Part shown: one piece after another, positions 16,584 through 60,944 of the stretch
Layout of the letters: each line of letters starts with the position of its first letter
How positions within the stretch are numbered: the first letter of the stretch is position 1
Assembly: GCA_019055375.1 (NCBI GenBank)
Contig: JAHQIW010000964.1
Location: 21,491-85,490, forward strand
From: Parelaphostrongylus tenuis
Lineage: Eukaryota > Nematoda > Chromadorea > Rhabditida > Metastrongylidae
DNA length: 64,000 bases
Direction: 5' to 3'
Notes under the pieces: generated by a model
Databases searched by the model: none
What the model was told of the DNA's origin: nothing
What the model saw: the letters and a program-made list of their open reading frames with translations, nothing else
Program-made: the position numbers and the translations under genes

Positions 16584-19500
16584 CTAGAAGTAAGAAGTAC
16601 TGTAGATAAAATTCCAGCGTTGCCACGAATATAGAGTTTCTAGACAGGGACACTATCAAATGCCAATTGTTTGTCATTTCCTTACACAAAAGAACCAAAA
16701 AAGAACAACCTCTGAACCTTTTTTCAACGAGAAAAATCCACTTAAAAGATCATGGTTTTTTCTTCTAATCAAAAAGCCTAGTAATAAAAAATAATCGTTA
16801 CCTCCAATGCTACGATTTCTTCTAAAAGTTGAGTAGATTTCAGATCGCTTTCTTTACTAGAATCGGCTGTTGGCTTCTAAAATAATGTCCCACAGTGGTA
16901 TAATTGAGTATATCGTCTGTATCGATTTGCAAGAGCATTTCAAGAACTTCATTCCCCATGCCTCTACTGAATACCAAAGAATGATGTTTCTAATGCACAT
17001 AGATAAATCCACATAGATATTGCAATCCAATAGCATAGGGTAGGATCGCTCATGAAGGAGCTGAGGGAGAACTCAAAACGCAAATTTTTTCTACGAAGCA
17101 ACCCCTTTTTTCAGTATACAGTCGCTTTTGTTCTGTGACGAATCAAACGGAGGCTTGTGGTATTGCATTACTACCGTTTTTACTAGTGATGAGTTGAAAA
17201 TGTTATAAGAATCGATTTTGGTTCTATGTGAACCCTTAATAGACTAGTTTGCGCCTATAGTAAGCTGTTATGATTGTATAAATGTGAACAGACGACCTAG
17301 CGTGGTAGACGTACACTTCATCCTAATAAGGAGGCCACTGACCAGCAAGCATGTTTTACACTCTGAGTTGCCCTCACCATATTAAACCAGAATTTTGGCA
17401 AGAAGAAGAAGATGCACTTAAAGATTGGGAAATTTTTTTTCAAAGGCCAACTACTCTTTGAAGCTTTGTTATCATCACTTTTTTCTCAAAATATCGTTTA
17501 TATAAGAAACTGTGGGGCAGCTACCTGTTGAGAGTCCTCTGAAGTCGGCAGCTCATTCCAATCAAACTTGTCATTATCACCGTTTAGAGTTCGAAGATCA
17601 ATTGACAGGAGTTGACTCCCTTCTCTGCTTCGTCTTCGAAATTTAGGAAACTAAACGTTATGATCATCTCCAAAATCTGGACACGATAGAACATCAATGC
17701 ATGATATTGCAGCAATTGTAGTCATGGTCAGAATATTAGTTAGGTCATTATATAAGTTTCGGTAAAACAGCATTAAATACCAACTTATTAGCACGTATTA
17801 GATGGAACTGCAAGATTTTGGCATCGTTCAATTGCACATTTTCTTGCGAACATTTTGGTATTCAACACACCTATAGCTCTTCATTCAAATGTGTTTATAA
17901 GCCTCGCTCAAAAGCAACAGTAATCTGATTAAATGATAACATATTTTGAGCCTTTTATTAGGACTGATATAGCACTTATACAATGGGAGACAGGCCTGTT
18001 TCGCCTCATCAGTAGAACGGCGCCTTTCCGTTAAGCCGAATCCTTACAGGTACATACATATAGTCGTGTAATAAATCGAGGTCTATAAAAGTAGTACGAA
18101 TGAAGAGGTATGATTCATTCTACCAGCCGCGAGCTCGAATGTTGGTCCCATAATGTCGAGGAGATTCATCACCTAATTTGCGGTGTATTGTTATTTGGCG
18201 TCAATTCCTTTATAAGGAATGGTATATCCCCCTGCAAAGGATCGGCTGAACCAAAGGCACCGTCCTACTGCTGAGCCTGGAAAGGTGAAACAGGCCTGTC
18301 TAGGGCTGTACAAGTGTCACACCAGATCTCAAAAAGGCTCAAAACATGTTGTCATATTGTCAACTTTCTTATACTTACTATAAAATAGAGTTGCAGTAAA
18401 AAGAAATCCGCTTGTTATTCATGCACAAAAAGTGCTTAGGGAAAAATGCTAGTGAAGAGGCGCACAAGCAGCATAATCGATATCGCCACTGGCGCAAAAG
18501 TTTCTTTCTCTAACAAAAAAAGATTTTTTCAGGAAGTACTTATGGATCTTTGTAGCTCTCTGATAGATTGTGATTTTCTCTACAAGTTTATATACTTCTT
18601 GGGCATATGTAGCTGCTATGTGCCAAGGAAACCCTCATATGAATGCAATTTTATTTTCCCTCTCATAGTGCGCCATGAAGACCTTTTTGAGAATCTGGTT
18701 AATCTTTGAATTCGCCGAGATTTAGACTATTGAAATAGTCTAGTTTAGTTCAACAAAATGCTACGGACTTTAGCCGAACAAATAAGGCAAACAGAGTGCG
18801 AAACACAATTTTATTTTTGCTGCCACAGCGTACTACAAAGACCTTTTTAAAACTAAGCAAAGCTTTGGATTTTCCAAGATTTGAGCTTTCAAATAGTTAT
18901 TTAAATCCTACATAATTATATTCGGCGAAGAAAACCTTTGAAAATTTGGGGGTAAAAATGATGCTCATCGCCCGCAAGGTATTAACTGAGCTTGCTGTAG
19001 ACGGCTCGAGCGCGACTGATCTCTGTCCAGAATGTTCTCTCCTGCTTCGAACTTCGCGAAACACTTCCTAGTCGTCCTTTCTGCAACCGTATCATCTCCC
19101 CCATCTTCACTGACTTTGCACGTCGTTTCACTAGCATTTTCCACTACGTGCCATTCGTGCATGAGTAGCAAGCGAATTTGTCCCCACGACAGCTCTATCT
19201 TGAAGCAAATATAAGCCAGTTGTATACCAAAATGTTCACAAGGTTGAATGGTACCAAAACTTTACAGTTTCAATCACTTTTAGTTAATGAATTTGATGTT
19301 CATTGCTATAGTGTCAAAACTTATGGAACGACCCAAAAACAACACAAATATCACAAATGAAGGTTGATGTCGTAAAGGATATGAAAACTGATTGTGAATC
19401 TCCTGAAAGAACAGACCGAACAGCTGTTCCAAAATCAACCCTAAAAAATTATCTGAAGAAATGCTAGTGCTGAAGGATAGGCCTAATGTCACCCTTACAT

Positions 19501-22500: not shown

Positions 22501-25500
22501 TCAAAAATAAACTGAAGCTGTGCAGCCACTAACTTTCTCATTTTCATTTTCTTGGCGAAAAAAGGAAAAAAATGGCTTTTAAAGGCTCGCCGGATAGTTT
22601 ATTTGATAGCAACTCCTGGTTTGCCAAGAGGCTTTTTTTACAGATCATGAAAAAAAACACGTGAACCACTCCACAATTGTCGAAATCGACGTCGACTTCT
22701 GAAGAAGGGTGAACAGAAGTCTACAATAGCAAAAACCATTGGCCGCAGTTATTTCTCGGCCTCTGTGATGGTTTGGACGGCATTTGTCCCGTCGGATAGA
22801 CGCTCTACATCTTCATTAACAGAAACGTCAAAATCGTTGCTGTCAGTTATCAGTAGTAAATTTTACGGTGCGTATTGAATCCTTAAAGCACTCTACACTC
22901 TGGTACCGACGAATTTACGCTTCAGCAAGTCTGAGGCTCACTTAGTGATTGCCATCTATCAAGAACTGTTTCCAGACTTTTGAAACAAAAACATTGGCTG
23001 TCAAACTCGCCAGTTCTGAACCCATTGGACTAGCCCATGGTCCATACTGGAGGAGAAGGTCTCGACTACGTGCCACAACAGCCTAGATGCGCTCAAAACG
23101 GTTTGATACTCGCCTGAGACGAAATCACGGCGGAAACGGGTGCGAGGATCGTTATAAATTTTTGCAGGCGACTTCATAGATATATAGAGGCTTGAGAAGG
23201 CAACTTTGAGAAGTGTTTCAAAACTTTTTGTTTGTTATTGCAATTGTTGATCTAGTAAACATATTTACTCTTTCAACTGAATGGATATATCCGTTTATGT
23301 ATGATTTTTTCAATGTTGAAATATGAAAAAATAATCAAAACTTCTGGCGCACTTTGTAATCATTAGTTAAAACAACGTTCGATTTTTAACAGTACACAAT
23401 AATGTCATTTGAATAACGCTAAAAAATCGAATGGCATTGATAAGTCATCACTCACTTTCTTCAATTTTCGGGATTTCCCAATCCTTGGCCGTTTAGTGGT
23501 CAATACCGGCACCACGATCTCGGCTGGTTCTGTTGTGCTGATTACGTTCATCACTGGCACTACGATCGCGGGGATTTCTGTTGTAGTGACTGCCTAAAGA
23601 AGCTAAACTTCGAACAGCAATACCCAAAGAAAGTTGCTACAAAAAAAAACATAAAAACATGATAAATCTTGGGTACTACGCATCACAGTGGCTGCCAATT
23701 TGGGTTTGCTCATGCGATATTGCCTAACCTATAAAACCTGTTAGAGGTTGGTGGCTAATAGCTATGATAGAGGCATTTCAGAATGAGTGGTAGTGATACG
23801 TTGCCTCGGTCGCGTAGTGGTAGCACGCTCCCTCTGTATGGGTGAAACGCGGGTCAACTCTCATCTGAGATTGAGTTTTTTGCACACCACTCAGTTTTCT
23901 TAGATATATTTGGAACTTCATAACACTGCTAAAAATGCAGTAACAACATAAGAAATTTTCATATTACAAACAAAGTTAGATTGGAAATAGAAGAGATCAA
24001 ACCTGGTCAACGAGTGGTTTCTTCCTACCAACACCAAGTTCGATGTTGCTCAATGTCCTAAACTTCTCATAGTCTACAACTGCTTATTAAATTCATTGAT
24101 ACGTTGAATTCTTCCCTATATATCTTGTTTCTGTCTTATGGCATCGGCTTTTTAAGAGAAATTAAAGCTCTGTTGAAAGAGCGATGATAACTTGCTACAC
24201 GCATACCTCAGAGCTGCCTCATTTCCGTGTTCGGAGGTGTTGGTGAAGTTCTGCAACATCCAGTCGAGTGTGTTCAACGCTCCAAGCGACATCTCCTGTA
24301 ATTGCTTCTCATTCCGCTGCTAGTAAAGTCTTCTGGTTGCAAAAAGATTTATACTTATTATAGACTGTTATAATGTTTCAAGTCATCAGAGCTCCGGCAC
24401 GCTAGTGTCATACGTACGTTTCGGCGTTCTCACGCGCCTCATTTGTGCCACATGCCTTGCGTCTCACCTCTACTGTCAAGAGCAGCGGTGCCGCAGATGT
24501 ATCAGTCAAGACAAAGTGAAATGTCACTCGATATTACGGTCTAGATCAATTTTTGATAGATGGCTTACTGCTGTTACCAAAGCTGGCAATATGTTTTGAG
24601 CCTCTTATGAGATCTAGTATGACGCTTACACAGATTAAATCAAAAGATCGACTGTTTTTGAAACCCCGAAAAAAAAACATTCAATATAATTCCAAAAAAG
24701 AATGATTTAAGCTCAAAAACGATACGCCAGGGTCATACACCGGTGTTTCGGAGGTTCGTCCTCCTCGCCAGTGACCCCCGCCCAACATTCAGCCCTGCAT
24801 TGAAGCAAAGAGGGAGGCGTATGTGGTGATGGAACAGTGTACAATGACACTGGTCCATCACCACCCCTCAGTCGATGGATTTCAGGGTTCACTTCGGGGT
24901 TTCAAAAACAGTCGATCTTTTGAATTAGTTTTGATCTAACAGCAAAAAATCCATCGACTGAGGGGTGGTGATGGACCAGTGTCATTGTACACTGTTCCAT
25001 CACCACATACGCCTCCCTCCTTGCTTCAATGCAGGGCTGAATGAGGGGCGGGGGTCACTGACGAGGAGGACGAACCTCCGAAACACCGGTGTATGACCCA
25101 GGCGTAACAACTCTGCTTACACAGATTATTGTCGTTTTTTGAGCGAGGTCTATGCAAATAGTCGAAAGTAAAGGTACAGTTTATTCTAGCAGCCATATGT
25201 GCACGACAGTGCTCATTGCAATATCTGGAGACTTTGTCACTCGACATTCGTTGATCTAAATAAATCGGCGTCGACTCTCTTATAAGTAGGGGTTAGATAC
25301 TCCTACAAGGAATCGGCTAAATCAAAAGGCACCGTGTTGCTGATAAACCTTTGAGGGCGATAACGCTGTTTAGTACTGTGTTAGTAATATACAAGACCAC
25401 ATGAAAGGCTCATAACATGCTATCAGAATATTGGAGTATTGTCTTGTTGAGTGAGATAGATATAAACAGCCTTAAGTAAATGTATGTTACCAAAGCATAT

Positions 25501-31500: not shown

Positions 31501-34500
31501 TCTACCTTCGTTTTTTTTTTCTTCATTGCATAGAGTGATATTCTGTGCTTTACGATCCGTTTGAACAGAGGAAAGAAGAAGAGAAAAAAAAAAGCGAGCC
31601 ATGTGACTAAAATGTCCCACTTACGCTTCATCCACTTCTTTGCTTTGTAGATGAAGTAGCTCGGCAGTGACAGTCGGTTGCAAACGTTTTCCCTAATGAG
31701 AATATAAGAAAATTCTCTATGATAATTCTTATCAAACTCACTACAATAACAATTTCTAAAACGCCCACTACTACTCACTGGATTTAACTCACCTATACAT
31801 GAGAAGTTTTGGCGAGATCTGTCTTGTCTTAGAGGACGATTTTCAATGATTAACTTATTGTTATCTAAAAAAGATTTATCATCTAAATCGTGGTGATGGG
31901 TGATACTATTATGGTGACCGTTTCGAACAATTTAATGACCTCTGAGGTTTGCATCTCTCCAGTAGCGCGACATGCTCTGAATAAAAGACATAGTGTGCGG
32001 CATTTGATCCAGGAAGAATACGTCATGCAGTTGACGATATTCGTAGCACCGTAAACGTAATTTCGATGCAAAGTTGGGCCAATACATCACCTTCAGTCAC
32101 CTCCAAAAGCTTACTTCATGTTCTAAGTTAGTGTTCATATCCTATAAGAAAAGTCTCATACCCCAGATGAATAAGAATAATGAATAATGTACAAGGTTAC
32201 CCTCCGCGAGTGGTGGCAGAGCAATAAACATGTGCATATCAAGACGCCTTTCAATTTCTGTGCTACACGCGCCAAATTTCGAAAATTGGAAAAGCCTCAA
32301 CTCTATGGCGACCACCTTTACTTTTCAGTCACACGCAGTCATAGTCATGTACATGCGTGTTAGTTTCGCTCATATATGAACTCTATCCTTGGCGATACAC
32401 CTGTAAGAAATCCCTTTTCCAAGATCATAACTTGGCTACTTACTCTGTAGTAAATTTCAAGAAGAATAATAAAGTGTAATGCTGCTCGTCCATATCGGGT
32501 TTGACCACTAACAGTCATGATGTGGTAACGGTGCTGGAGGTGCTGACCCACGTAATTGAGTTACTCAACGATTAGTGGCATCTACAGGTGCTAGGTTCAT
32601 GACTGTTTTAGGGGCAAAATATAATACTAATACATTGTCACTCTAAAGAGGCCTAAATTTTTATTGGAAAGCAAACTTTCAAAATCGTGTTAATCAAGTT
32701 AAGTAGGCAGAAAAGATTTTGACAGACAACCTTGGGAGTTAATTTCCAGAGATTTCTTGACGTGAGGAGCAACGTCGGATTGATTAAGTTCCATCGGTTT
32801 TCCTCTTCCTAAACGTTACTTTCATAAATAAAATTGTAAGGTGTTAAGAAAACAGATTCATTAGCCAAAGTCTCAGCATGGTTGAAATGAGTGAAAGTCA
32901 AATAAATTGCTTTTCTTCGTTACCATATCAAATAAAACGAAGTCAAGCAGGACCGCATTTCATTCTGTAATCGTATTATAGACACGATATGAGCTATTCC
33001 TATCTTCCTATATTTTACCGCACACAATGCATGATTCGCAGCACTCACTTTTGACATTCAAGCAAGTCTAGACAAGAATTTTATATCTCAACAAGACTGT
33101 TCCTAAACGTCGGACAGCGAAACATCTAATGTTTCGTACCCCAAATGGGTAACCTGATCCGCAAAGCATGACACTCCATTCGCTGTCTGCTAAAGGCAAA
33201 CCGGTACCATAAATTGTTAACGCCTTCGAAAAAACTAGATCAAAGAAGTTAGAACAATGTATAGATGCCTGCGGATGACTGTGGTAGCGAATTCAGTGCG
33301 CTGGCATTTCCCAGCATTCTAATAAAATGTGTATCCACCCAGAACCAACTTTATGTTTGATTAGGCACTAATCGAATTCACTGCTTTCATCAAATTAGGA
33401 CACATAAGGCATTCGTACAGATGCTGTTAACAAAACTCATGCCAAAAACGTTCTATCGAATTATATCAAAATTTTTAAATGAGATTTTAGGAAAAAATCG
33501 ATTAAAATGGTATTGTCACATATACCGTCGCAACATCCGTACGTCATCCAATCACAATCGGTCAATGAATGAGGGTCATATCAAGTGATCTTTCCACTTG
33601 GCGTACATCTTCGGCTACGATTCTTGATATAGTAGGGACGACCAGATCGGCCTAGTGACATGTGCTACTGATGAGGCTTGCGAGAAGGTCGAAACGTATG
33701 TTTAGCATTAGTGGTGCCATTTCAGACCTCATGAAAAACTGAAACTTACTATCACCTGGATTAAATTTGGCTGCTAAGTGGGCATACAAACGTTGCAGTT
33801 GACTATTTTGAGACCTCGTACAGGAATAGTATAGATTGACAATGTATTTTGAGCCTTTCATGAGGTCTGCTTTGAGCACCCATAGAGTGCAAAACAGTGT
33901 CTTGCACTGTAATGGAAGTGCCCATTAGAGACTCATGAAAGGCTGAGGATACACTGTCAGATTTCAAAGTTCTTGAGCGAGGTCTCTATACTGTCGATTG
34001 CAATGTTTGTTACATATGCCCACGTAATCCAGTCCGCCGTGAAGTCGGCAATCAGTCACACTCAACACTTTGAAGGAACGCGACGGTGGTTGTTTCACCG
34101 TACGTCGAGTGTGATAAGTTCGCCCTCGATTTTTTCATGTGGAGGTGGGTTTCCGAGAAACTAATTGAACGAAAAGGTACCGTGCAACTGACGAGGCCAC
34201 AACGCCAAACACGTGCCTTGCACTGTATAAAGCCCATAACAGGCCTCATAAAAGGCTTGACTGTCAGATTGTATTGAAATTTATCCAATAATACCGACTT
34301 CGGCGCTTTCGTCTTCTCCGAAGCGTGAAGTTACTCAATCCAACACGTTTATAACCCCAGCAGAAAAACTTAGCCTACAAATTTTTGATTCGTAAACTAA
34401 ACGGTTTTTTCCAAATATTCACTTTTTTATTTTTCTTAAGTTTTCCCACAATTCCTTGAAAATTAGTCGGACGGAGTCTATATAGGTTAAGAATGTACAA

Positions 34501-37500
34501 GGATAAGGACAAAAAAGATAAGCTGTTTGAAGTGAGATCACACATGACTTCAAGACACTCTTCCTTATTGTTCAATTTTGCATGTTGAGATTCATTCTAA
34601 GCACACAAGAATTTTTCACGCCATTTCAGATTGCTGTGGAAGTACAATGACGTTCACTTTTGAATTATCTCAGTTATTTCCTTGTGGACGCGATGAATAC
34701 AGTTCGACTTTGAATTTCTCAAGTGGATGCTCTTTTACACGAAGATAGAGTGGTTTAGACGTTTTCCATCTATGTATTCGAAGCCAAATGATAAAAACAC
34801 GGTTCACTACCTCGCCATCTCTCCTCACCTTTCAAACATAAAACGTGCGCCATCAAGAAACTTTTTCCAAAGAACCATCATTGCTTCCACAGAAAGAGAG
34901 TTGGGGTTGAAATCCTCGCATCTGGTATGTAAAATAGCAATTTCAATGGCTACGATAAAGTGACAGTTTCTCCGGTCTAGTTTAGAGAAACAGTGATGCT
35001 CTCAAATGATGAGTTTCGCAAGACTGTGGTCCCGCTCATTCCGTCCATTGTTTCTAACGGAATAAGCACAGCTATTGAACGGAGCTCAAAACGGGTCAGT
35101 TCAGAGAACTGGATAGCTGTGAATAAAATACCACCGAGTACTCTAAGACGTCAGTTAGATCGTCACCGTTTGTTTGGCCATCTATGCGAAACGCAAAACT
35201 GCATACCCTGATGTTAGAGATGGCGATTCCACAAAGTTGGGTACGGTATAGTACCGTATAGGACGAATATATTGGTGTGGTGGTGCGAAGAGATCACTCT
35301 TCGTCTGTAAAAGAAACCTCGCAGTTAAGAAGCTCAAAGTTAGATAATACATTCCCTCAACTAAGCATAGCTCAGGAATATATAACGAGAAAGTGTTTAG
35401 AGCAAAAGCTGCTGCCGTCGCATGGAAATTCACAATATCTGCGCGAAAAACTCTTGTAGCGCCTTGGATAAAGTCCAAAAATCCAGTATGCTTCAACCAT
35501 GAGTGTCTTATGATCATGCGTGACCTCGTCTAATAGTTCACGTTAACGTATTCTAATTTGAGCTCTATACATTCCTACTATAACGACCTGTGCAGATGGT
35601 CTCCAATAATAATTGGAACACCTAGAAAGGACGAAACAAAAAGGTGATATTTCAAAAAAAAACAGCGGGTACTTTTTCTCTATCTGAACACATTTCCAAC
35701 CTATTGAAAACAACGCGTTTCCGCTTCTTTTTCTGAGCAATTCGATAGCTTGAATCTCAACAACTTTGATGCTTCACTTCAACTTAGAAAAAAAATTTTG
35801 AATGCTCTGTAGCAATAACAATACTGTTAATTTTCACACTCGACTCATTTCGGCGCATTTTTGCTGAGTAGAGCTTCTCCTCAGACTTTTGGAAACTATT
35901 CGATAGCTCGATTCTCGAAATCTTCAGCAGTGTATTTGATTTTTCCAAGAATATTTTTTTGGTGCGCTGTAGTAGCCGAAAGAAAACTGGGTGTTGCACT
36001 CGCTTGCGCTCTTTATGTCGGCTAGGGTTTGTGAGTGGTTGTGTATCAATCGCGCAGCACGTTTCACAAGAGGAGTGCTATTCTCCGCTTTGGCAAAAAA
36101 AATTCTAATTACATAGACTCTATACAGGGAGATGTCCTCTACACGTTCAGATGCATTTCGTGGGTGGGCTTAGGCTGCTTAGGCTTGAGCTTATTAATGG
36201 CTTTATTTGGCAATGTGAGGTCAGGTGAAAATGAAAAGCCTAACCTTACAACACGATAGAACAAAGTTATGTTCTAGGAGTTCACTACAAAACCTACGAT
36301 TCTCCACCAAACGGTGAAAAAATCCTTCAAATGAATAATAGATATAAGCGCGTAAAACGCGCCGAATGTGTAAAATAGTTTTTTTTTACTACTACAGCGC
36401 ACTGAAATAGAGTGATCAAAATCAAAGACAGTATCAGAATTGTCAAGTATAAATCTATTGAACATTTACTGAGTTTAGGAAAAAAATGAAAATTCGTTGT
36501 CGCAAAGATTTGAAAATGTGTACACGAAACGAAAAAGTATCAGAAATTGATATCTGTACAAATCAACATTTGCTATCAGGTTTTTTCAGCGGTTTTGAAG
36601 GTTTGACTATGCAATTTGTGCTTTTATTCGGTTTTGTCAAGTCCTAGAAGGGACAAAACCGTCCATTGCCAGCGACTATCGTATTGGAATATATTCGGGT
36701 GCGTAAAAAGTTTCTGGTAATGTTTTCAGATATTTCAACAGTTGAAAAATACTGCAAACAAATAAATTCATTCAACTGAATCACGTTTATTGAGTCTACA
36801 GTTATAACAATAAGAAAGAAGGTTTACAACAAACTCTCTATACATTCACGAAGCCCCTGGAGAATTTCCAGCATTGCTCGCCTCCTTTGGCCTCTATACA
36901 TTCACGAGGTCACTTGCGTGCTCGCACACTTTTCGGTAACAGTTTCGTTCTAAGCGTGTGTCAGAGCCGTTTTACGCGCGCCACGGTAGTGTACGAATAG
37001 CTGAGACTATTTTCTCTAGTATGGAACACGGAGTAATCTACCGGGTTGAGATTTGGCGACGACTTTGACGGTAAAATGTTCCCTACCACGAACATGCCTG
37101 AAAAGAGCTCTTGGCAAATGGCAATCGTTGGGCGAGTTGGATGTGCAGGAGCCCAGTCCTACTGAAGCGCAAATCCATCGGCGTCAAAGTGTTGAGTGCT
37201 TCAAAGGCTCCAGTACGCCGTTTAAAACCCGATGCTGATAGCTGGCAGCGTTAATTTTTGTTTCCGTTTATAAAAACCATCGGCGTCCTTCCGGTGGCGC
37301 AGATGTTGGCCTAGACTGTCAAAGAAGCCGGAAAATGACTGCGGTCTATAGTTTTTGTTATGCAAACTCCTGCTAACGTTTCGTAAGAAGTTAGCGTCGA
37401 TTGTAGTGATTATGGAAGTGGTTCGACCGAGAATATCTTCGCATCCGTAGAATGTATCTTCTACAAACGAGCAACAGCTATTTAAATAAACCATTCGGCG

Positions 37501-41705: not shown

Positions 41706-42564
41706 GAAATGACTTCCTTCGAATAACATTCGATTGGTGATTATGATTACATACCACATCTTTGCTTTCCGTTACATTTACGACGCTAAAAGTCTTGAAA
41801 AGCAATCAATATTAAGGGGAAAGTCATTGAAACTGAGTTGCTATTTTCGTAATGAGTTTCCAAGAGGAATTGCGTTTGAACTGAACTATCTACTTATGAG
41901 CGATAAATTCAAGTTAGTACATATTCAGCTTCCTTGGTTTCTAAATTTCACTGAATAATAGGTGATAAATTGACGCATTTTTTAACATACGGAAAATTTT
42001 GAACCAAACCGTGTGAGACAGCGTGCAACAGAGTTCCCAGGCTGTGAAGAGGAGATAAAGGGCTTGGGACATTACCTTGGTAGCAAATTAATTCAGTGAA
42101 TGGGTACCCTCTCATTCTGAATCAGAATGACCTATGCTCTCCTGAACACTAAAATCCAGCCCGTCTGTTGATTTAGGGGAGCGTTTATGTGTATGCGAAT
42201 TGAAATTTCATCCGTCAAAGTCAACGAACTCAATTGATTGGAAAATACACTGACGGCAACAATTTCCTTGTCATCATTAGCGAAAAAATCCTTATGTCTA
42301 TCATAGGTGGGAAAGTCCGAGTATTCCAAATAGGTGGAATGCATGGAGATTTTGGTGATGGCTACTCACGAGATCTGAGAGTTAAAGAATTACAGGCGAT
42401 GTAGGCAAATAGATTGCGCCGTATATCCTATGAATATCAGCGTGTATGACATAAGGTGCCCACTCTTACAAAAATGAATACTTCTGTTATCGACTGCTTT
42501 TTTACAGACCGCTCAAAATGATTTAATCTGATAAGGATATGACATATTTTGAGCCATAGGTCTA

Positions 42565-42612
42565 GTGCTATATAGGCGCCTATTTCGTCCTATTGGGACT
42601 CATCAGTAGCAC
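42565..42612 (-). ncRNA. hammerhead ribozyme, inverted first monomer
   Basis: Identical to the plus copies: stem I GTGCTA/TAGCAC, CUGAUGA, stem II GTCC-CAATA-GGAC, GAA, stem III ATAGGCGCCTAT, H17 = A. It points away from the array. Confidence 0.85.
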
Positions 42613-42935
42613 CCTCCCTCGGTTCCGTCGATCCCTTGAGGTGAAATAATCCTCTAAAGGAACCGACGCCGAGTAAAATTAAGCACCCAAAGTAGGATGA
42701 TGGTTTACCTGACTTTGTGGTGACCGGCAGTCGAGCTATCCTTATCAATTAAATCATTGAGCGGTCTGTAAAAACATTCGATACAGAACATGTTCATTTT
42801 AAGAGCCGTCGCTCGACTGCCGGTCACCACAAAGTCAGGTAAAACCATCATCCTACTTTGGGTGCTTAATTTTACTCGGCGTCGGTTCCTTTAGAGGATT
42901 ATTTCACCTCAAGGGATCGACGGAACCGAGGGAGG

Positions 42936-42983
42936 GTGCTACTGATGAGTCCCAATAGGACGAAATAGGCGCCTATATAGCAC
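42936..42983 (+). ncRNA. hammerhead ribozyme, unit 1
   Basis: Stem I GTGCTA/TAGCAC (6 bp), core CUGAUGA, stem II GTCC/GGAC with loop CAATA, GAA, self-complementary stem III ATAGGC/GCCTAT without a loop, H17 = A. Predicted cleavage is after 42977. Because stem III is a bare palindrome, activity may need a dimeric RNA fold, as known for short-stem-III hammerheads. Confidence 0.88.
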
Positions 42984-43217
42984 TAGACCTATGGCTCAAA
43001 ATATGTCATATCCTTATCAGATTAAATCATTTTGAGCGGGTCTGTAAAAAAGCAGTCGATAACAGAAGTATAGTTCATTTTAAGAGCCGTACGCTCGACT
43101 GCCGGTCACCACAAAGTCAGGTAAAACCATCATCCTACTTTGGGTGCTTAATTTTACTCGGCGTCGGTTCCTTTAGAGGATTATTTCACCTCAAGGGATC
43201 GACGGAACCGAGGGAGG

Positions 43218-43265
43218 GTGCTACTGATGAGTCCCAATAGGACGAAATAGGCGCCTATATAGCAC
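43218..43265 (+). ncRNA. hammerhead ribozyme, unit 2
   Basis: Same 48 bases as unit 1. Cleavage is predicted after 43259, 282 bases after the unit 1 site. Confidence 0.88.
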
Positions 43266-43500
43266 TAGACCTATGGCTCAAAATATGTCATATCCTTATC
43301 AGATTAAATCATTTTGAGCGGGTCTGTAAAAAAGCAGTCGATAACAGAAGTATAGTTCATTTTAAGAAGCCGTAAGCTCGACTGCCGGTCACCACAAAGT
43401 CAGGTAAAACCATCATCCTACTTTGGGTGCTTAATTTTACTCGGCGTCGGTTCCTTTAGAGGATTATTTCACCTCAAGGGATCGACGGAACCGAGGGAGG

Positions 43501-43548
43501 GTGCTACTGATGAGTCCCAATAGGACGAAATAGGCGCCTATATAGCAC
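43501..43548 (+). ncRNA. hammerhead ribozyme, unit 3
   Basis: Same 48 bases as unit 1. Cleavage is predicted after 43542. Confidence 0.88.
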
Positions 43549-43782
43549 TAGACCTATGGCTCAAAATATGTCATATCCTTATCAGATTAAATCATTTTGA
43601 GCGGGTCTGTAAAAAAGCAGTCGATAACAGAAGTATAGTTCATTTTAAGAGCCGTACGCTCGACTGCCGGTCACCACAAAGTCAGGTAAAACCATCATCC
43701 TACTTTGGGTGCTTAATTTTACTCGGCGTCGGTTCCTTTAGAGGATTATTTCACCTCAAGGGATCGACGGAACCGAGGGAGG

Positions 43783-43830
43783 GTGCTACTGATGAGTCCC
43801 AATAGGACGAAATAGGCGCCTATATAGCAC
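43783..43830 (+). ncRNA. hammerhead ribozyme, unit 4
   Basis: Same 48 bases as unit 1. Cleavage is predicted after 43824. Confidence 0.88.
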
Positions 43831-44065
43831 TAGACCTATGGCTCAAAATATGTCATATCCTTATCAGATTAAATCATTTTGAGCGGGTCTGTAAAAAAGC
43901 AGTCGATAGACAGAAGTATAGTTCATTTTAAGAGCCGTAAGCTCGACTGCCGGTCACCACAAAGTCAGGTAAAACCATCATCCTACTTTGGGTGCTTAAT
44001 TTTACTCGGCGTCGGTTCCTTTAGAGGATTATTTCACCTCAAGGGATCGACGGAACCGAGGGAGG

Positions 44066-44113
44066 GTGCTACTGATGAGTCCCAATAGGACGAAATAGGC
44101 GCCTATATAGCAC
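44066..44113 (+). ncRNA. hammerhead ribozyme, unit 5
   Basis: Same 48 bases as unit 1. Cleavage is predicted after 44107. Confidence 0.88.
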
Positions 44114-44347
44114 TAGACCTATGGCTCAAAATATGTCATATCCTTATCAGATTAAATCATTTTGAGCGGGTCTGTAAAAAAGCAGTCGATAGCAGAAGTA
44201 TAGTTCATTTTAAGAGCCGTAAGCTCGACTGCCGGTCACCACAAAGTCAGGTAAAACCATCATCCTACTTTGGGTGCTTAATTTTACTCGGCGTCGGTTC
44301 CTTTAGAGGATTATTTCACCTCAAGGGATCGACGGAACCGAGGGAGG

Positions 44348-44395
44348 GTGCTACTGATGAGTCCCAATAGGACGAAATAGGCGCCTATATAGCAC
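44348..44395 (+). ncRNA. hammerhead ribozyme, unit 6
   Basis: Same 48 bases as unit 1. Cleavage is predicted after 44389. Confidence 0.88.
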
Positions 44396-44629
44396 TAGAC
44401 CTATGGCTCAAAATATGTCATATCCTTATCAGATTAAATCATTTTGAGCGGGTCTGTAAAAAAGCAGTCGATAACAGAAGTATAGTTCATTTTAAGAGCC
44501 GTACGCTCGACTGCCGGTCACCACAAAGTCAGGTAAAACCATCATCCTACTTTGGGTGCTTAATTTTACTCGGCGTCGGTTCCTTTAGAGGATTATTTCA
44601 CCTCAAGGGATCGACGGAACCGAGGGAGG

Positions 44630-44677
44630 GTGCTACTGATGAGTCCCAATAGGACGAAATAGGCGCCTATATAGCAC
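44630..44677 (+). ncRNA. hammerhead ribozyme, unit 7
   Basis: Same 48 bases as unit 1. Cleavage is predicted after 44671. The array ends about 35 bases further on, within the monomer. Confidence 0.88.
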
Positions 44678-45269
44678 TAGACCTATGGCTCAAAATATGT
44701 CATATCCTTATCAAATGAATACTTTTTGAAAAAAAAAACCGATTGAATTGTCGATAAACGAAACCGAATTGAGCATTAGGAGGGAGTGGCCGTGGTGTGA
44801 CGAAACCACGAAATTGACTCAGCTTGCCGGTCGGAGCCCATGATGGCTCTACGGTTTGTTGTAACGCTGAAAATGTGGAGTTCTTGAAATTACTTCCAGA
44901 ACATTTCACCGTTTATGCTGTTTTCATGCTAATAAAATCGTTCTTACTAGGTTTACTTTCTTCTACGTTTTCATAATCAGAATCTAGCAATTCGTTTCGG
45001 AAACTATTCGTCATTACTTCATTTCATTTCGAAAAATCTGTTACAAATTTAGACCCTATCTCAAAAATTGACGAGAATATGATGAAGACGTAATGAATTC
45101 AGTCATACTATCATGCAATAACAATAAAGCATGGTTTTTTACTGATAAACCTCGGAATGGCTCACTTCCAGTTAACACTTCTTAATTGATGTTCAAATTA
45201 TATTAAATAAGAAACTCAGACTACTTCAAATTTTTTATAGCGAGGCCTGAAAAATACTCGACTGAATAG

Positions 45270-45560: not shown

Positions 45561-47320
45561 GCAAAGTCCAATTAATGTAACATATTGATCATCTTTCTAG
45601 CCGTTTTCGACACAATCAAAAGAACGATGAGAGTTTTACTTCGCTTTAATTCAAATCATCCAAAGTCGTTAAGGGAAGTGAACAAACATACATTGCTACA
45701 GTCACACTTTGGTTGGCAGTCTTCGATGAAAACGACTTTCATTAGGCCTTAAAAACTGTCCACAGAAAACATTATCCATTATTTTGTGCAAATTTCCTAC
45801 TTTGCAGCAATAATTGCAACTTTGGCAAAACTCGAGCTTATCGATTGTCAACGGGCTTGGTTTGAATTTTTAAGTAATAATCTCAAATAAAATAAAATTG
45901 ACAAATGCAATGCAGCAGAATCCTCACGAGGCGAAGTAAGGCTAGTAGCTTGCTCTGCGAATTTCAGTTCAGTATTATGGTACCTTTGAATCTGTTGCTA
46001 TAATGAAATGATCACAATGCTGGTCACAGCTCTGACCAGCCTGAACCGTCTGCTGTGTCAGGATAACAAGAAAGAAAGAAACGATAATTCAGCAACGAAA
46101 ACTTGCGCCAATTAACCGCTGTTTAGGCATTCAATGTTTGTGAAAGATTTTTCAACTTTACAGAACGTCAGCCGATTGCTAGATTCGATTTCGTTGATTA
46201 TTGGATTTGATAGACTCTTATCCGATTCTATCAGTAGTAGAACTTTGCTTTGATTGCTGGCAGAAAACGGATGTCAAATAAGACGAGTACAAAATTCTTC
46301 AAAGCAATAGATTTCCAGAAATAAAAAGCTGGATTGACTAATTATGCCGATGAGTCTTTGCGTGTGAAGAGCTAGGAACACCGCAGTGCGACAATATCAC
46401 ATTTATCCAAGCAGACTTAATCTCGTCAACGCAGATAAATGACCACAGACCCTCAGAAGTCAGTCCATTGGTAAAATCTAAATCACCACCTTTACATCTT
46501 TGGAGATAACGGATCACAGCGAAACAACTAAATATTTAGGACTTTATCTTATTTTTGGACCAACCACTATATGAGTATATACCGTAATCACATCACAGCT
46601 AATTGAATTAGATCCAATCTGTAATTTTCTGTATGAGATTGTTCAATTAAATACATGATTTTCAAGAACGACTATCTATTACTCGGCATTCTTTAGTAAT
46701 TCTATTTTCTTCAGTACGGTACGTCAGCTTCCAGAATAACTTGTTTCATAGAACTCGTGTTTAGCCTAATAAGATAATACTGAATGCACGATTGATTGCT
46801 ACTTAGTTTGAGATACATGAATCGTTCGAATCTAATTTGAATATATCATAGTATGCGTTACTTCACAATAAAGGTGCAGACTCACAACACAACTCTTCTA
46901 ATCTAATCCAGCATGCAAGGCTAGCTCAAATCTGAGCGGTGGTGGAAGCTGTAACTATCAGCGAAGAACTATCTCAAGCAAGTAGCAATCACTTGGGTGA
47001 ATGTTAAGAAAAGGCAACTATTTTGACGTGCAGAATTCATAAAACAGTAGGAAAATAAGAAAGAAAACTTCTATAGATCGTACTGGGAATGATAAACTTG
47101 TACTGAAACAGATGGTGATTCAAACCTCCGACAATGGACCTACGACAAAGGAGACGAAGCGCCCCCCTCACTCAAAGGAATTTTGATAAAGATGACACAT
47201 TGTGGACCAACTTCAATAATTTTCCGTACCACATGACGCTAATATCTCTTTCTAAAACTCAGAAGACGTGAGACATGCCTGATAATCATTTTTTGAGTCA
47301 TGCATGTAGTCTGATTCAGG
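45560..47320. other. interval without a supported gene
   Basis: AT-rich unique-looking DNA. No splice-bounded frame, tRNA or repeat structure was recognised. Confidence 0.35.
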
Positions 47321-47332
47321 GCAACTTATAGA

Positions 47333-47376
47333 GCCCGATACAAAGGTTTCGGCCCTGAGAGCCTCGTCACTCGGGC
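47333..47376 (-). ncRNA. hammerhead ribozyme relic
   Basis: Stem I GCCCGA/TCGGGC pairs perfectly, stem II GGC/GCC, GAA, H17 = A. The core is GUGACGA, so C3 is lost. Single copy on the minus strand, with monomer-like GAGTTGGCGTCGAC nearby (47430). Confidence 0.5.
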
Positions 47377-48914
47377 AGTATCTTTCGCCTTTAGCCAATC
47401 CTCACCGGATAACCCGACCCCTCTTTGGAGTTGGCGTCGACAGACATGTTATACGTGGGATATCTAGAGTAATGTCATTCTATCATCGCTGATACCCTCA
47501 GTGAGCCAACAGAGGTCGAGTTCATGTGATGAGTTGAGAGTGGTGACCTGACTAACTCGAGCTGTTCAGCAATAGCAGGTTGATAAAATGACTCAGACAT
47601 CGTTAAACTGGCCTCAATAGCCCGAAAAAACTAGCTTGCTGTTGACCTAAGTTGCACATGCGAGATATTGTAACGTTCGGTTGATGGTGATGGGATCTTT
47701 CAATCGTATACTTTGAGCAAAATTTTGCTTAATCAAAGATCTTAAAACTCGCCCGTGGCTGAAATGCACCGATACTGGCTTTTTCGATTAGTTTAGCTAA
47801 GTCGATAGTGCTGCTTCACGTCTAACGGTAGCACAGAATATAAGATGGTTTCAAGAAACCGTGCCACCTAGTCTTATCAAATCATTCGATTAGAAAGCGT
47901 CTATGAATCAAGTTGGGTCCATACACAGCGTGATTTCTAAGATGTAACGAGCTCATACGCATTGTAAATGAGCGCATAATGCTGTCGTTTTGAACCAGCC
48001 CGACTTGCAAATGAAACCGAAGGATTTTATGATCTGTTTTCAGCGACAAGTAGGTGACTGATTCAAGATCATTCATTATCAGTAGGTGATATGATGAAAT
48101 GAAACGAGTTCGATCACTATTTTCTCTTGAAGTGACCACCACGATCCTGACCCACAAGCCAACAAAACCAAAGTGTAAAACCCTCGAAAAGTTTTTCATG
48201 AATTTCAGAAATCCAAAATGAACAGTAAAGACGAATGCACCGCTATCACACATAGCCTAGCTCCTTTCTTTTAGGGTTTATTTTTCATCTGGGTGGTTTC
48301 ACTCGTTGTACGACGAAAGCAACTTATGTAGTCTTCCAGCTTGAAAAACGTTGAGCAACTTCCTACAAAGTGTCGTTAATTTTTATGATAGCTCTCCATT
48401 AGCGGGATGATGGTATTATAATTATTTACTTGTAATACAATAAGTGCAGTGTCTCAGAAGACAAAATGATAAGCAAGAAGCCGGTTCGATGGCCTCTCAA
48501 AACATTCTTGTAAATCAGTCAACTAAACGCAGGAAACTCGTCTTGATGAGCATTCTACGACAGTCATAAGAAACAGAAATTGTCAAGCAAGAGTCGAATA
48601 AACACGTGTAATGTCCAAGGACCTGTGTGGAGAATGAATGTAACAAACCAATAGACTGCAAGAGGTGACAGGATCCGCTCAGAAATCGTGATGGCGAATC
48701 GGATACAGTAAAAAAAAAAGTGATTCAAAACGATAAAACAATATAGCTTTTCATCACTACTATGGACAGCGTTATAAAATATGTTCAGGCTCAAAGGAAT
48801 GTGATGCCGGTGAGATATTAGCTCTTGATCACGACAACAGCAGCAACTGAGAGCAGTCTCGAGTCAGTTTAGCAAGGGCATTTCGCAACAGCATAACGTC
48901 TACATATAGGAATA

Positions 48915-49510: not shown

Positions 49511-49831
49511 TGAAGAAGAAACTACTAATAGATAGAAGTTAGAGCATTGTGATCTTCACTAGGTATATATGTTTGTTGTTTTTGGTCGGATAAGATATTG
49601 ACTCTACGTTGATAGCGGAAAAGTTAAACGTAAAACGGTTGTATATGAAAAGTTTTCATGTAAATTGCAACGATCGCACTTACAATTTATCGGTTCAAGC
49701 AGCTTATATCATATCTCGTCAAACCGTTCGTTACGAGTGTTTTCTTAAAACCGCGCTCAAATTTCAATATCCTTGACAATTTTTTTTTTGCCCAACTTAT
49801 CATATGGCCCCTTTTATGGGCAACTTATAGA

Positions 49832-49933
49832 GCCCAATGCACTTGTTTCGCCCTCGACAGCCTCGTGTAAAGCTAAAACGATGGATACAGCCCAAGTTAA
49901 GAGGCTGTCAAGGCCGAAACACGTGTATTGGGC
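49832..49933. mobile_element. small decayed inverted pair of hammerhead segments
   Basis: Minus copy 49832-49865 (AGCCCAATGC...TTTCGCCC, core lost) and plus copy 49890-49933: stem I GCCCAA/TTGGGC is perfect, stem II GGCT/AGGCC, GAA, stem III ACACGTGT, H17 = A, but the core is GUUAAGA. The same minus-then-plus order as the intact elements. Confidence 0.5.
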
Positions 49934-49939
49934 TCTATG

Positions 49940-51840
49940 AATCCATAATAAATTGACTTAAATAAAAATGGATTTTAGTTCATCAGTCAAGACTTCCTTT
50001 TCAAGTCAACAAAAGTTTTGTTTTTCTTCTCTTCTTGAAGGATTCTGTGGCAAAACTAAGACATTTGAAGCTTAAATGGGAGCGATTTATGCTACAGCAG
50101 TAGAATACCGTTGAGAATCGCCTTCTAATTTCGATTACTGTCAGCGAGAAGAAGAAAACGAATGAAAAAAGTGCTGGGGCCTGCACCACTCGTGATAACG
50201 GACCGTCAAAGTATCCAAATAAGTAGGTATCCTTTACAGAGATGATTAGACGTAGATGGGGATAACTACTAAAGAAGACTTTCCATACGATTCGTGTAAA
50301 GTTCAATAGTTGTTCCATTCGCTATCAGAATATCATCAATTATTGCAATAACTGATGCCGAATCTTGAGGATCTACATGAGATACATAACATTCCGTTTT
50401 GTATCGTATGTGTGCAATAAAGGGGGTCTTTTTCTCAAATGTATGACACGACATTTCTCTATCAAAGTCGTCCGTGCCAATTAGCGAAAACAACATTGCA
50501 AGCTATCGAAATCAGAACGGCTGTGGATCAAACACAATGGTAGGAGAAAAAAGTGATATCAGATTTCATCTAGGATCGTAGGAACTGCAGAAATCCTTCA
50601 GTAAACGAGAACTTTTCGTTTCAAAATAGAAGATGAATAGCTGAAAATCGTGACTACTGTAAAAGGAGTGGTGACGGCTCGGGCAAGTATGAATATGTTC
50701 CTATCAAATTAGTAAAGGAACTCAATTCGATTATGCAGTTGTTTAAAGTATGGGTATTGATGATTATGGAAAATAGTAGAATTACATGACAAGCGAATTC
50801 TACAGAGGATTAACCAGTATTTGAGTCGATAACTAAAAGTTTTCGCGGCAAGTGAGATGTAGGAAAGTAAAGTATTAGACGATGTACGGGCTGAATCCGA
50901 GTTAGTACACTTCCTAAAAAGTTCAAAAAGAAAAGAGAATAAATTCTGCAATCAACGATAGAGAAGTGGAGCACAATCTGCCACTAAACTCTTAGATTCA
51001 ATAGGACTGATAATAACTATGAGTGGACTACTGTAGGCCTTGCTTCCATAAGTTCTACTTCTTTTATATTTTCTTTATGATTGGTTTGCGTGATCATCTC
51101 TTGATAGTCCATCTATCCCGTCATCGTAACAGTGTAATAGAAATAAACTACGTCTCACAGATAATCACCTCCCAGCACGATCATCAGAGAAAGAAGAAAT
51201 TTTTGTACCATCAAAAGATTTCATTAAAAATAAGTTATTTGTAGTGGGGATTTGTACAGCTAAAATTATGTTCTTAGTGGGAAGATGTGAAATGGGATTC
51301 TAGTAGACAATATGCGCAATGACCTCCTCGGAAAATGACAAGAGATTCTTTCTAACCGACCTTAGATCTTTCAATTTCTGATTATATTCCTAGGAGACCT
51401 AAAAATTAAGTCATTGCCGAATTTGTAGATCGTTGAGAAATCATTAAAATAATGTTTCAATGATTTTTTGAGATGATCAATCCAAGAAACGCAGTATCGT
51501 GCTCTGACATTCAAAACATAGTGACCAGATAGTCTAGAAAAGCAAACATAAAATGTGAAACATCGTACCCTCAAATCCAGATTTCCAATAAAATGCCTCC
51601 TGAGACTAATCTCCAAACAAGGTGATAAAAGAAAGAAAGAGTGACGTGATTGTGCATCAGAGACGTAATTTGTTCAAAAGAGTTTTAACGTGCTTTAAAA
51701 AAATATGAAAAAGCGAAGGAGTTTGAACGGCCTATGAGAAAACATTGGCTATTTGAACTGATATGGATTTAGTAGTTATGAAGTGGTGAGATGTTGTAAA
51801 AAAACTTACTTTTTAACGGATTTAGTAAACCTACTAGTAG
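49940..51840. other. interval without a supported gene
   Basis: AT-rich. Several short frames on both strands without splice borders or motifs. Nothing supported. Confidence 0.35.
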
Positions 51841-54972: not shown

Positions 54973-55200
54973 ATGCAGGAGAAGAGCAAACAATTATCAC
55001 TGGAGTGCTCTACGAGAAAGAAACCTCTTTATAAGTCGTTAGAGTCTGAACTGGCGGATCTCTTCTCATCTGTACAACTACTCGATATCAGTCAAACTAT
55101 GCCTGAACTCATACAGTCCTCCTCTCTTCCGTTAGAACATATTATACAGTTTTCTGAATTGCACAATAAATCTTGGAGGCGGTTGCGGACTAGTTACTGA
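54973..55200 (+). other. unassigned open frame, possible 3' exon
   Basis: The frame after CCTATGCAG reads EKSKQLSLECSTRKKPLYKS, then LESELADLFSSVQLLDISQT and ends RRLRTSY at 55200. The composition is protein-like (amphipathic Leu/Ser), and ATGCAG could be an acceptor. No family recognised. Confidence 0.3.
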
Positions 55201-57699: not shown

Positions 57700-57840
57700 T
57701 GCAAGAATTTTGCATCAGTTGGAACTCGCACCCACAATTCAATCTACTCAGAGGCGCGTGCTCGAACCGCTCCACTGCCGACGCGTGTTTCGACACCATT
57801 CTTCTACGCTACAACGCATCAATCTGTTAGCTAGTCGCTA
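57700..57840 (-). repeat. tRNA-like (SINE-type) segment
   Basis: The minus strand has CGTCGGCAGTGGAGCGGTTC (A-box context) and GAATTGTGGGTGCGAGTTCC (B-box context), matching 31085-31225 in layout. It lies just left of the 57891-58172 element. Confidence 0.5.
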
Positions 57841-60392: not shown

Positions 60393-60447
60393 CTTTCATT
60401 ATTATTTGAGCCAACATGTCATGTGGCCTGGTAAAGGCTCTTGTACA

Positions 60448-60490
60448 GTCCGAGACACGTGTTTCGTCCTTACAGACTCATCAGCCGGGC
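60448..60490 (-). ncRNA. hammerhead ribozyme, left arm of element C
   Basis: Core CUGAUGA, stem II GTCT-GTAA-GGAC, GAA, stem III ACACGTGT, H17 = C. Stem I GCCCGG/TCGGAC has one C-A mismatch compared with the right arm. Confidence 0.7.
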
Positions 60491-60792
60491 AGAACCCGTC
60501 GTCTGTCGATCTTTTCATAGTCAGTTCTCTCGGGAGCATCACACTCCTTATATATAGTTATCGACGACCTACGCTTTACACTCTTTGTCAGGTGAAACAT
60601 TCACCTAACCTGAGTGTTTTCGCACTCGATTGCTAGCTGGCTGGTATTTTTGGTAAAGCTGGTAAACACTCAGGTTAGGTGAATGTTTCACCTGACAAAG
60701 AGTGTAAAGCGTAGGTCGTCGATAACTATATATAAGGAGTGTGATGCTCCCGAGAGAACTGACTATGAAAAGATCGACAGACGACGGGTTCT

Positions 60793-60835
60793 GCCCGGCT
60801 GATGAGTCTGTAAAGACGAAACACGTGTCTCGGGC
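60793..60835 (+). ncRNA. hammerhead ribozyme, right arm of element C
   Basis: Stem I GCCCGG/TCGGGC, core CUGAUGA, stem II GTCT-GTAA-AGAC, GAA, stem III ACACGTGT, H17 = C. All invariant positions are present. Predicted cleavage is after 60829. Confidence 0.82.
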
Positions 60836-60944
60836 TGTACAAGAGCCTTTACCAGACCACAAGACATGTTGGCTCAAATAATAATGAAAGGATCTATTGA
60901 AATTTGAGCGTGGTCTTAATAAAGCACTCGAAGGAAAGGTATAA

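What the first reader, a model, noticed from the sequence alone, without database searches (positions are those of the whole stretch)
42482..44712. Tandem array of hammerhead-ribozyme monomers: a retrozyme-like element
Seven plus-strand repeats of 282/283 bp, nearly identical, each contain the full type I hammerhead: GTGCTA - CUGAUGA - GTCC/GGAC hairpin - GAA - ATAGGCGCCTAT - A - TAGCAC. A transcript through the array would cut itself into unit-length RNAs able to be re-ligated into circles. This architecture is known for retrozymes in plants and animals (work of Cervera and de la Peña). I am not aware of this family in this type of nematode. The near identity suggests recent amplification or homogenisation.
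Basis: partly seen in the sequence, partly recalled or inferred. Interest (0 to 1): 0.95.

Follow-up and report, generated by a model that had tools for sequence, protein, structure and literature searches.

The report
Ribozyme-bearing jumping repeats in a worm
A parasitic worm's genome is strewn with short repeats that carry a self-cutting RNA motif, and their insertions bear a two-ended signature pointing to the enzyme of another jumping gene, which would help explain how such repeats spread if bench tests confirm it.

Summary
The array is real: seven plus-strand and one minus-strand type I hammerhead motifs, with six complete 282/283-nt units at 42978-44671. But it is one arm of a larger insert (42484-44712): a 254-bp minus arm joined head-to-head to a 1975-bp plus arm, bounded by a perfect 12-bp target duplication. 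Six other loci of the superfamily lie in the window. The contig is Parelaphostrongylus tenuis, a strongylid nematode. In a genome search listing 150 of 209 matches, 29 of 40 clusters are head-to-head, none tail-to-tail, 11 show one orientation. In all 15 family-A inserts where I resolved both ends and a 10-16-bp duplication, one end lies at unit position 84-93 ('tail'), the other further 5' (33-43 in 13 of 15, 'loop'). Head-to-head arms, a tail at one end and short duplications are published features of Penelope-like elements (PLEs); PLE coding fragments occur in the same genome. Best reading: a metazoan non-LTR retrozyme, for which I found no nematode report, mobilised by PLE machinery through two-ended target-primed reverse transcription. 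Self-cleavage, circles and PLE dependence are untested; variants shared among units argue against one monomer circle as sole template.

The parts
42472..42483 (.). left target-site duplication AAATGAATACTT
   Evidence: 12/12 match to 44713-44724; the best of 300 random 40x40 comparisons scored 9
42484..42737 (-). minus-strand arm; outer end at the tail site (unit position 88)
42565..42612 (-). type I hammerhead, minus strand
   Evidence: RF00163 29.5 bits, E 0.0034
42737..42738 (.). inner head-to-head junction
   Evidence: sequence and alignment
42738..44712 (+). plus-strand arm, about seven unit lengths; outer end at the loop site (unit position 41)
42738..42977 (+). partial, indel-rich innermost plus unit
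   Evidence: 95% identical to unit 1
42978..43259 (+). unit 1 (282 nt, from predicted cleavage site)
43260..43542 (+). unit 2 (283 nt)
43543..43824 (+). unit 3 (282 nt, identical to unit 1)
43825..44107 (+). unit 4 (283 nt)
44108..44389 (+). unit 5 (282 nt)
44390..44671 (+). unit 6 (282 nt, identical to unit 1)
44672..44712 (+). terminal 41 nt, ending at the loop site
42936..42983 (+). first of seven plus-strand hammerheads (others at 43218-43265, 43501-43548, 43783-43830, 44066-44113, 44348-44395, 44630-44677)
   Evidence: RF00163 29.5 bits each
44713..44724 (.). right target-site duplication
60393..60944 (.). second family, head-to-head pair; duplication TAAGCCATTATC at 60381-60392 and 60945-60956; loop end left, tail end right
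   Evidence: hammerheads 36.9 and 34.3 bits; arms 98% complementary; duplication; ends
24584..25484 (.). older head-to-head element; 12-bp repeat TGTTACCAAAGC at 24572-24583 and 25485-25496 read as its target duplication; a younger inverted element with strong hammerheads (e.g. core at 25058) nested inside
   Evidence: the 12-bp repeat came from a wider search without its own control, where a 14-bp internal repeat scored higher
17877..18372 (.). older head-to-head element, degenerate hammerheads, approximate ends, no duplication found
   Evidence: nhmmer to unit A E 1.4e-18; ends by eye
33640..34290 (.). older complex element with a hammerhead core at 33668, approximate ends, no duplication found
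47273..47454 (-). older fragment of the superfamily
49718..49971 (.). older head-to-head element, degenerate hammerheads, no duplication found at the ends

Best explanation
The array is one arm of a non-coding, hammerhead-bearing retroelement (a metazoan non-LTR retrozyme) of the nematode P. tenuis. Proposed cycle: (1) repeated RNA is transcribed and wholly or partly self-cut by the type I hammerhead (inferred). (2) A PLE-encoded reverse transcriptase/GIY-YIG endonuclease binds two adjacent hairpins 3' of the ribozyme (inferred). (3) It cuts both target strands about 12 bp apart, leaving 3' overhangs; each 3' end primes cDNA synthesis on retrozyme RNA, one starting in the loop of hairpin 1 and the other within hairpin 2, about 50 nt further 3' (end positions and duplications are shown; cutting and priming are inferred). 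(4) Each cDNA copies from a fraction of a unit to six or seven units, by circling an RNA circle or by copying multimeric RNA (open). (5) The two cDNAs are joined head to head. In the window the loop-primed cDNA ran about seven units and the tail-primed one 254 nt.
For: Eight hammerheads with intact core. Perfect 12-bp duplication. 15 family-A inserts with duplications of 10-16 bp: tail end at unit position 84-93 in 15 of 15, other end at 33-43 in 13 of 15. 40 clusters in the 150 listed of 209 genome matches: 29 head-to-head, 0 tail-to-tail, 11 one orientation; 27 show a tail-length end match on one side, 0 on both. In a second family the other end falls at query 227-230 in 8 places. In the predicted circular fold both sites fall inside adjacent hairpins. 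In L023 an array with a 12-bp duplication interrupts a degenerate PLE coding region; with the flanks joined, one frame matches across the junction for 15 of 15 PLE proteins of 430 aa or more. PLE coding fragments and two PLE-type minimal hammerheads are in the same genome. Published PLE features: two adjacent internal initiation sites, both strands cut and extended (PMC11167929); inverted pLTRs, optional 31-bp tail, 8-10-bp duplications (PMC3846280 passages).
Against: No RNA or activity data. No sequence shared between a PLE and the retrozyme was found (only L043 was tested), so the partner PLE is unidentified. The loop/tail distance (about 50 nt) exceeds the 30-40 nt given for PLE tails. A variant shared among non-adjacent units (C A C A A C) and a divergent unit in L023 do not fit one monomer circle as sole template. 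Covariation for the hairpins is weak within family A. Exceptions: C3876 has no duplication; L020 (16) and C3434 (52) have displaced loop ends; C292 has a longer tail; L022 is one-armed; L026 has an ambiguous duplication and a right end that seems to fall short of the tail range; L023 has an unclear right end; 10 of 18 stretches gave no duplication at their ends.
Confidence: 0.75

Rival explanations
1. Same retrozyme, but mobilised by a LINE-type reverse transcriptase; the inversion arises by twin priming.
For: Reverse transcriptase (RVT_1) ORFs occur in fetched stretches (L021, L038, L041), lineage not determined; LINE insertions can carry a 5' inversion (recalled).
Against: Twin priming predicts one fixed 3' end and a variable outer end of the inverted part (recalled); here both outer ends cluster at two sites. 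No poly(A) at the insert ends read.
Confidence: 0.12
2. Satellite DNA expanded by unequal exchange, the ribozyme being incidental.
For: Tandem arrays exist; a hammerhead-derived 78-bp satellite fills the 4 kb of L039; shared unit variants could reflect conversion.
Against: Dispersed short arrays with target duplications, recurrent ends and head-to-head arms; empty-site test in L023.
Confidence: 0.05
3. A fold-back DNA transposon that happens to carry the ribozyme.
For: Long inverted repeats and a target duplication of fairly constant length.
Against: The two termini of one insert are different sequences (loop end and tail end), and the arms differ in length and unit number.
Confidence: 0.03
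4. Assembly artefact of inverted or tandem reads.
For: Palindromic junctions are error-prone (recalled); the innermost plus unit (42738-42810) is rich in small indels.
Against: Different target sites with different duplications at many loci; the same architecture in two sequence families.
Confidence: 0.03

Closest known systems
Metazoan non-LTR retrozymes (Cervera and de la Pena 2020, PMC7229834; parts 1-4 of 6 read)
   Same: Type I hammerhead in roughly 170-400-nt tandem repeats, GC below 50%, duplications longer than 4 bp when present, PLEs in the same genome
   Different: Described there as tandem repeats, with the mobilising enzyme only proposed; the word 'inverted' is counted 0 times in that text. 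Here inserts are mostly head-to-head with two unlike ends. Nematodes are not named among its phyla in the parts read ('among others').
Penelope-like elements (PMC11167929, parts 1-2 of 4 read; PMC3846280, passages)
   Same: Head-to-head terminal copies, tail extension at one end, short target duplications, tandem copies, hammerhead near the terminus
   Different: These repeats encode no protein; their hammerhead has stem III, unlike the minimal PLE form; units are 282-320 nt; the tail step is about 50 nt.
Plant LTR retrozymes (PMC4918200 seen in listing only; features from PMC7229834 and passages of PMC7761336)
   Same: Non-coding retroelement with hammerheads
   Different: Type III hammerhead, LTRs, PBS and PPT, 4-bp duplications; here type I and 12 bp, LTR motifs not searched for.
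Newt and axolotl repeats with hammerheads (PMC7229834)
   Same: Tandem units of about 330-350 bp; type I hammerhead with a short stem III
   Different: In family A stem III is 4 bp over GCGC, and the inserts here are short, dispersed and inverted.

Membership tests
Metazoan non-LTR retrozyme | Type I hammerhead with complete core | tested here: met
   Eight motifs; RF00163 29.5 bits each, below gathering 34; relatives over the cut-off
Metazoan non-LTR retrozyme | Tandem repeats of roughly 170-400 nt, GC below 50% | tested here: met
   282/283 nt, 44% GC; second family period 319-320 nt
Metazoan non-LTR retrozyme | No protein, no LTR/PBS/PPT | tested here: inconclusive
   No stop-to-stop frame of 110 aa or more overlaps 42484-44712; LTR motifs were not searched for
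Metazoan non-LTR retrozyme | Dispersed mobile copies with target duplications | tested here: met
Metazoan non-LTR retrozyme | Loop 1-loop 2 tertiary contact | tested here: inconclusive
   Loop CAATA and a possible stem I bulge read by eye only
Metazoan non-LTR retrozyme | Self-cleavage and unit-length linear and circular RNA in vivo | not testable with these tools
   No reads or bench data
Metazoan non-LTR retrozyme | PLEs in the same genome | tested here: met
   L043 ORF and other fragments
PLE-type integration product | Head-to-head terminal copies | tested here: met
   29 of 40 clusters, 0 tail-to-tail, 11 one orientation in the 150 of 209 matches listed
PLE-type integration product | Tail extension at one end from a second adjacent initiation site | tested here: met
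   15 of 15 inserts with both ends and a duplication resolved; L026 not resolved
PLE-type integration product | Short target duplications | tested here: met
   10-16 bp
Penelope-like element (autonomous) | ORF with RT and, in canonical PLEs, GIY-YIG endonuclease | tested here: not met
   Unit is 282 nt with no long frame
Plant-type LTR retrozyme | Type III hammerhead and 4-bp duplication | tested here: not met
   Type I topology; 12-bp duplication

The most novel reading that the evidence does not exclude
Animal retrozymes are obligate parasites of PLE machinery: their RNA carries a two-hairpin docking module, and each integration uses two unlike initiation sites, one for each cut target strand, so that every two-ended insertion bears exactly one tail and one loop end. 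This would be a fixed asymmetric mechanism, read out in a large number of genomic fossils.
Probability: 0.55. Interest if true: 0.82.

Novelty: new variant of a known kind. Interest (0 to 1): 0.72.

Why it matters
Which enzyme moves animal retrozymes is open: PLEs were proposed as a strong candidate from shared hammerheads, tandem arrangement and coexistence (PMC7229834). Here the insertions themselves carry ends of the kind that PLE initiation leaves, at base-level resolution and with target duplications, so the proposal becomes directly testable in vitro. It also suggests that such integration is asymmetric (one start site per cut strand), extends retrozymes to a nematode, and explains palindromic repeats in which Rfam sees nothing at default thresholds or, at loose ones, microRNA precursors.

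Tried and rejected
Rejected or disfavoured: satellite by unequal exchange, LINE twin priming, fold-back DNA transposon, assembly artefact (see rivals). Rfam microRNA matches at 24844-24985 and 60576-60707 fall on the arms of the palindromes and are below gathering; taken as artefacts. The Rfam model does not report the hammerhead-like cores at 25058 and 33668 that my pattern finds, even at E up to 10.

Led nowhere: a variable-gap motif search (syntax error). A first scan of L001-L008 stopped with a script error at L006. Covariation of the hairpins on 22 related sequences: paired cells 83.6% against 82.2% in shuffles (4 of 500 as high), 12 double-change cells (11 of 500), covariation score not exceptional (151 of 500); so the structure rests mainly on folding energy and one cross-family compensation (GCAGTCGA/TCGACTGC in family A; GCACTCGA/TCGAGTGC in the second family, contiguous in L066, but with one mismatch in L064). 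Pfam on ten window ORFs gave only a TMEM87-type domain below its cut-off. No match of the retrozyme models to the PLE stretch L043. P0008 matched no solved structure. Three of five second-family loci were cut so that one end was not covered (C3194, C81, C4204). Paper searches touching hammerheads, retrozymes, PLEs or nematodes: I recognised no listed paper as reporting a native nematode retrozyme; listings were capped, subscription papers and supplements were not searched, and the terms were poorly chosen.
Full report
WHAT IS THERE. The finding's array is real. Six complete units of 282 or 283 nt run from 42978 to 44671; units 1, 3 and 6 are identical and the other three differ from them by two changes each. 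Each carries the stated type I hammerhead. Rfam's Hammerhead_1 model gives 29.5 bits and E = 0.0034 to each of seven plus-strand copies and to one minus-strand copy, below its gathering score of 34, so a default scan misses them. In 40 simulated sequences a strict motif pattern occurs 0.125 times per 64 kb.

THE REAL BOUNDARIES. The array is one arm of a head-to-head insert. A minus-strand arm (42484-42737) meets the plus-strand arm (42738-44712) at an inverted junction; a 198-nt stretch of the minus arm is identical to six plus copies. Immediately outside lie two perfect copies of AAATGAATACTT, 42472-42483 and 44713-44724; the best of 300 random comparisons of the same size scored 9, against 12.

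THE NEIGHBOURS. Nhmmer places six other loci of the window in the same superfamily: 17.9-18.4, 24.6-25.5, 33.6-34.3, 47.3-47.5, 49.7-50.0 and 60.4-60.9 kb. The one at 60.4 kb belongs to a second family, passes Rfam's threshold twice (36.9 and 34.3 bits), and has 98% complementary arms and a 12-bp duplication TAAGCCATTATC. An older one at 24.6 kb has TGTTACCAAAGC at both ends; this came from a wider search without its own control, in which a 14-bp repeat inside the locus scored higher. A younger inverted element is nested in it. For the loci at 18, 34, 47 and 50 kb no duplication was found at the ends.

THE ORGANISM. A window exon matches Parelaphostrongylus tenuis proteins (97% over 61% of the query). 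The window lies on a contig of 85,490 bases, the length given for the contig of P. tenuis KIN20_006827, one of the matches. The assembly has 481.5 Mb in 5,105 contigs. Of 16 stretches taken from every 300th contig (54,192 bases), 5 hold superfamily sequence (L033, L037, L038, L039, L042), one of them a 78-bp satellite derived from it. So the superfamily is common, perhaps one locus per 10 kb; that is an extrapolation from a small sample.

THE ARCHITECTURE. Searching the genome with unit 1 gave 209 matches, with 40 of 1,585 candidates scored; 150 matches are listed. Grouping the listed rows gives 40 clusters: 29 with a minus block left and a plus block right, none the other way round, and 11 with one orientation in the listed part. 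Four of the 29 (C4926, C1553 and two on C3537) share the same internal geometry and may be one event. Arms hold from a fraction of a unit to six or more (C1695 has six minus and four plus units). In 27 of the 40 a match of tail length is listed on one side, in 0 on both.

THE ENDS. I fetched both ends of 10 clusters, chosen because the listing showed both arms, and examined 18 further stretches brought by the Rfam search. With the window array, 15 inserts have both ends and a duplication: 9 of the 10 (C3876 has none) and 5 of the 18. In the order window, C363, C44, C934, C2081, C3434, C757, C4757, C2705, C2112, L013, L020, L021, L024, L027 the duplications are 12, 11, 13, 16, 12, 10, 13, 12, 12, 12, 12, 12, 14, 13 and 11 bp; those of C4757 and C2705 carry one mismatch and that of C363 is A and T only. 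For C4757, C2705 and C2112 I took the match adjoining the ends rather than the top-scoring one. Counting from the predicted cleavage site, one end lies at 84-93 in 15 of 15 and the other at 41, 38, 39, 38, 36, 52, 36, 39, 41, 42, 42, 16, 33, 43 and 38. None of these 15 has two tails or two loops. Of the other 13 of the 18 stretches, L022 is one-armed with a 12-bp duplication, L023 has a 12-bp duplication and an unclear right end, L026 has an ambiguous duplication and a right end that seems to fall short of the tail range, and 10 gave no duplication at their ends. In the second family the non-tail end falls at query position 227-230 in 8 places (61 matches; 40 of 2,143 candidates scored), and tandem copies have a period of 319-320. 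Of five of its loci fetched, C519 has the expected ends with an 11-bp duplication, C292 has a 13-bp duplication and a tail about 20 nt longer than usual, and three were cut so that one end was not covered.

EMPTY SITE. In L023 an array sits in a degenerate PLE coding region. With its two flanks joined at the 12-bp repeat, a single reading frame matches across the junction for 15 of 15 PLE proteins of 430 residues or more. This is independent support for insertion with target duplication.

STRUCTURE. Folded as a circle, unit 1 gives -89.4 kcal/mol, 5 standard deviations below 100 mononucleotide shuffles; most loop-site ends fall in the apical loop of a long hairpin 3' of the ribozyme and the tail ends inside the next hairpin. 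Covariation within family A is weak, but the second family shows a compensated G-C to C-G change in hairpin 2 (L066; one mismatch in L064).

HOW IT MOST LIKELY WORKS. The published PLE from the anole lizard cuts and extends both target strands and starts cDNA at two adjacent internal sites, which its authors tie to the genomic 'tail' (PMC11167929, parts 1-2 of 4 read). PLEs in rotifers carry inverted pLTRs, an optional 31-bp tail at one inverted copy, and 8-10-bp duplications (PMC3846280, passages). The nematode inserts show features of each kind. With 3' overhangs of about 12 nt, each cut end could prime its own cDNA; the orientation then follows, since both arms have the RNA's 3' side outward, as observed. 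P. tenuis has PLE sequences: L043:851-1759 has a GIY-YIG match just below the curated cut-off (21.5 bits, cut-off 22.6); the search with it found 197 proteins (120 listed), many from strongylids with RVT_1, HTH (PF26215) and GIY-YIG domains, and P. tenuis KIN20_038414 at 88%. That this domain set marks a PLE rests on PMC11167929 (RT plus GIY-YIG) and on recalled sequence features. PLE fragments occur in 3 of the 16 spaced stretches (L028, L042, L043) and in the window at 34775-35527, 48126-48283, 55065-55335 and 9957-10067. PLE-type minimal hammerheads occur twice in 306 kb, in L043 and L028, and 0 times in one simulation.

WHAT DOES NOT FIT. One site reads C, A, C, A, A, C along six units, and L023 has a divergent unit. 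A single monomer circle copied round and round would not give shared variants; multimeric RNA, template switching or later conversion would. So 'circle' is not established as the template. All variation among the six window units falls at about unit positions 85-115, inside hairpin 2, unexplained. No sequence link between the retrozyme and a particular PLE was found (one PLE stretch tested). No transcript or activity was examined.

COMPARISON. Cervera and de la Pena (PMC7229834, parts 1-4 of 6 read) describe metazoan non-LTR retrozymes by type I hammerheads in short tandem repeats, low GC and circular RNA, and propose PLEs as a strong candidate helper; they name rotifers, platyhelminths, annelids, crustaceans and insects 'among others'. 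The present elements meet the sequence criteria I tested; loop-loop contact and absence of LTR motifs are inconclusive, activity and circles could not be tested. My paper searches showed me no report of a native nematode retrozyme or of loop/tail ends on retrozymes, within an open-access library and capped listings. 'Nematis' as a PLE clade is named in PMC3846280; that it is a nematode clade is recalled.

Noticed in passing
L039:1-3995 (G000 C3400:10001-14000): A 78-bp satellite, about 51 copies filling the fetched 4 kb, derived from the 3' half of the hammerhead and the loop-site hairpin.
   Followed up: partly
window 34775-35527, 55065-55335, 48126-48283, 9957-10067: Degenerate PLE coding fragments in the window itself; the first lies just downstream of the 34-kb hammerhead element.
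   Followed up: partly
L043:1967 (+) and L028:2858 (-): PLE-type minimal hammerheads (GGCTCTGAAGA...GAAACGT) in stretches that hold PLE fragments; in L043 about 208 nt after the ORF.
   Followed up: partly
L015:4448-5835: Probably a second case of a (degenerate) hammerhead element lying inside a PLE coding region.
   Followed up: partly
window 42738-42810: The innermost plus unit next to the inverted junction is full of small deletions relative to other units; sequencing error or a trace of cDNA joining.
   Followed up: no
window units 1-6, unit positions about 85-115: All variants among the six units fall inside one hairpin around the tail site.
   Followed up: no
window 20092-20739 (-): Exon of a probable TMEM87/GOLD-type membrane protein gene (below Pfam cut-off) with two P. 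tenuis matches (KIN20_017258, KIN20_006827).
   Followed up: partly
window 57753-57798 and 58000-58045: Inverted repeat pair, 78% complementary, that looks tRNA-related by eye; possible SINE.
   Followed up: no
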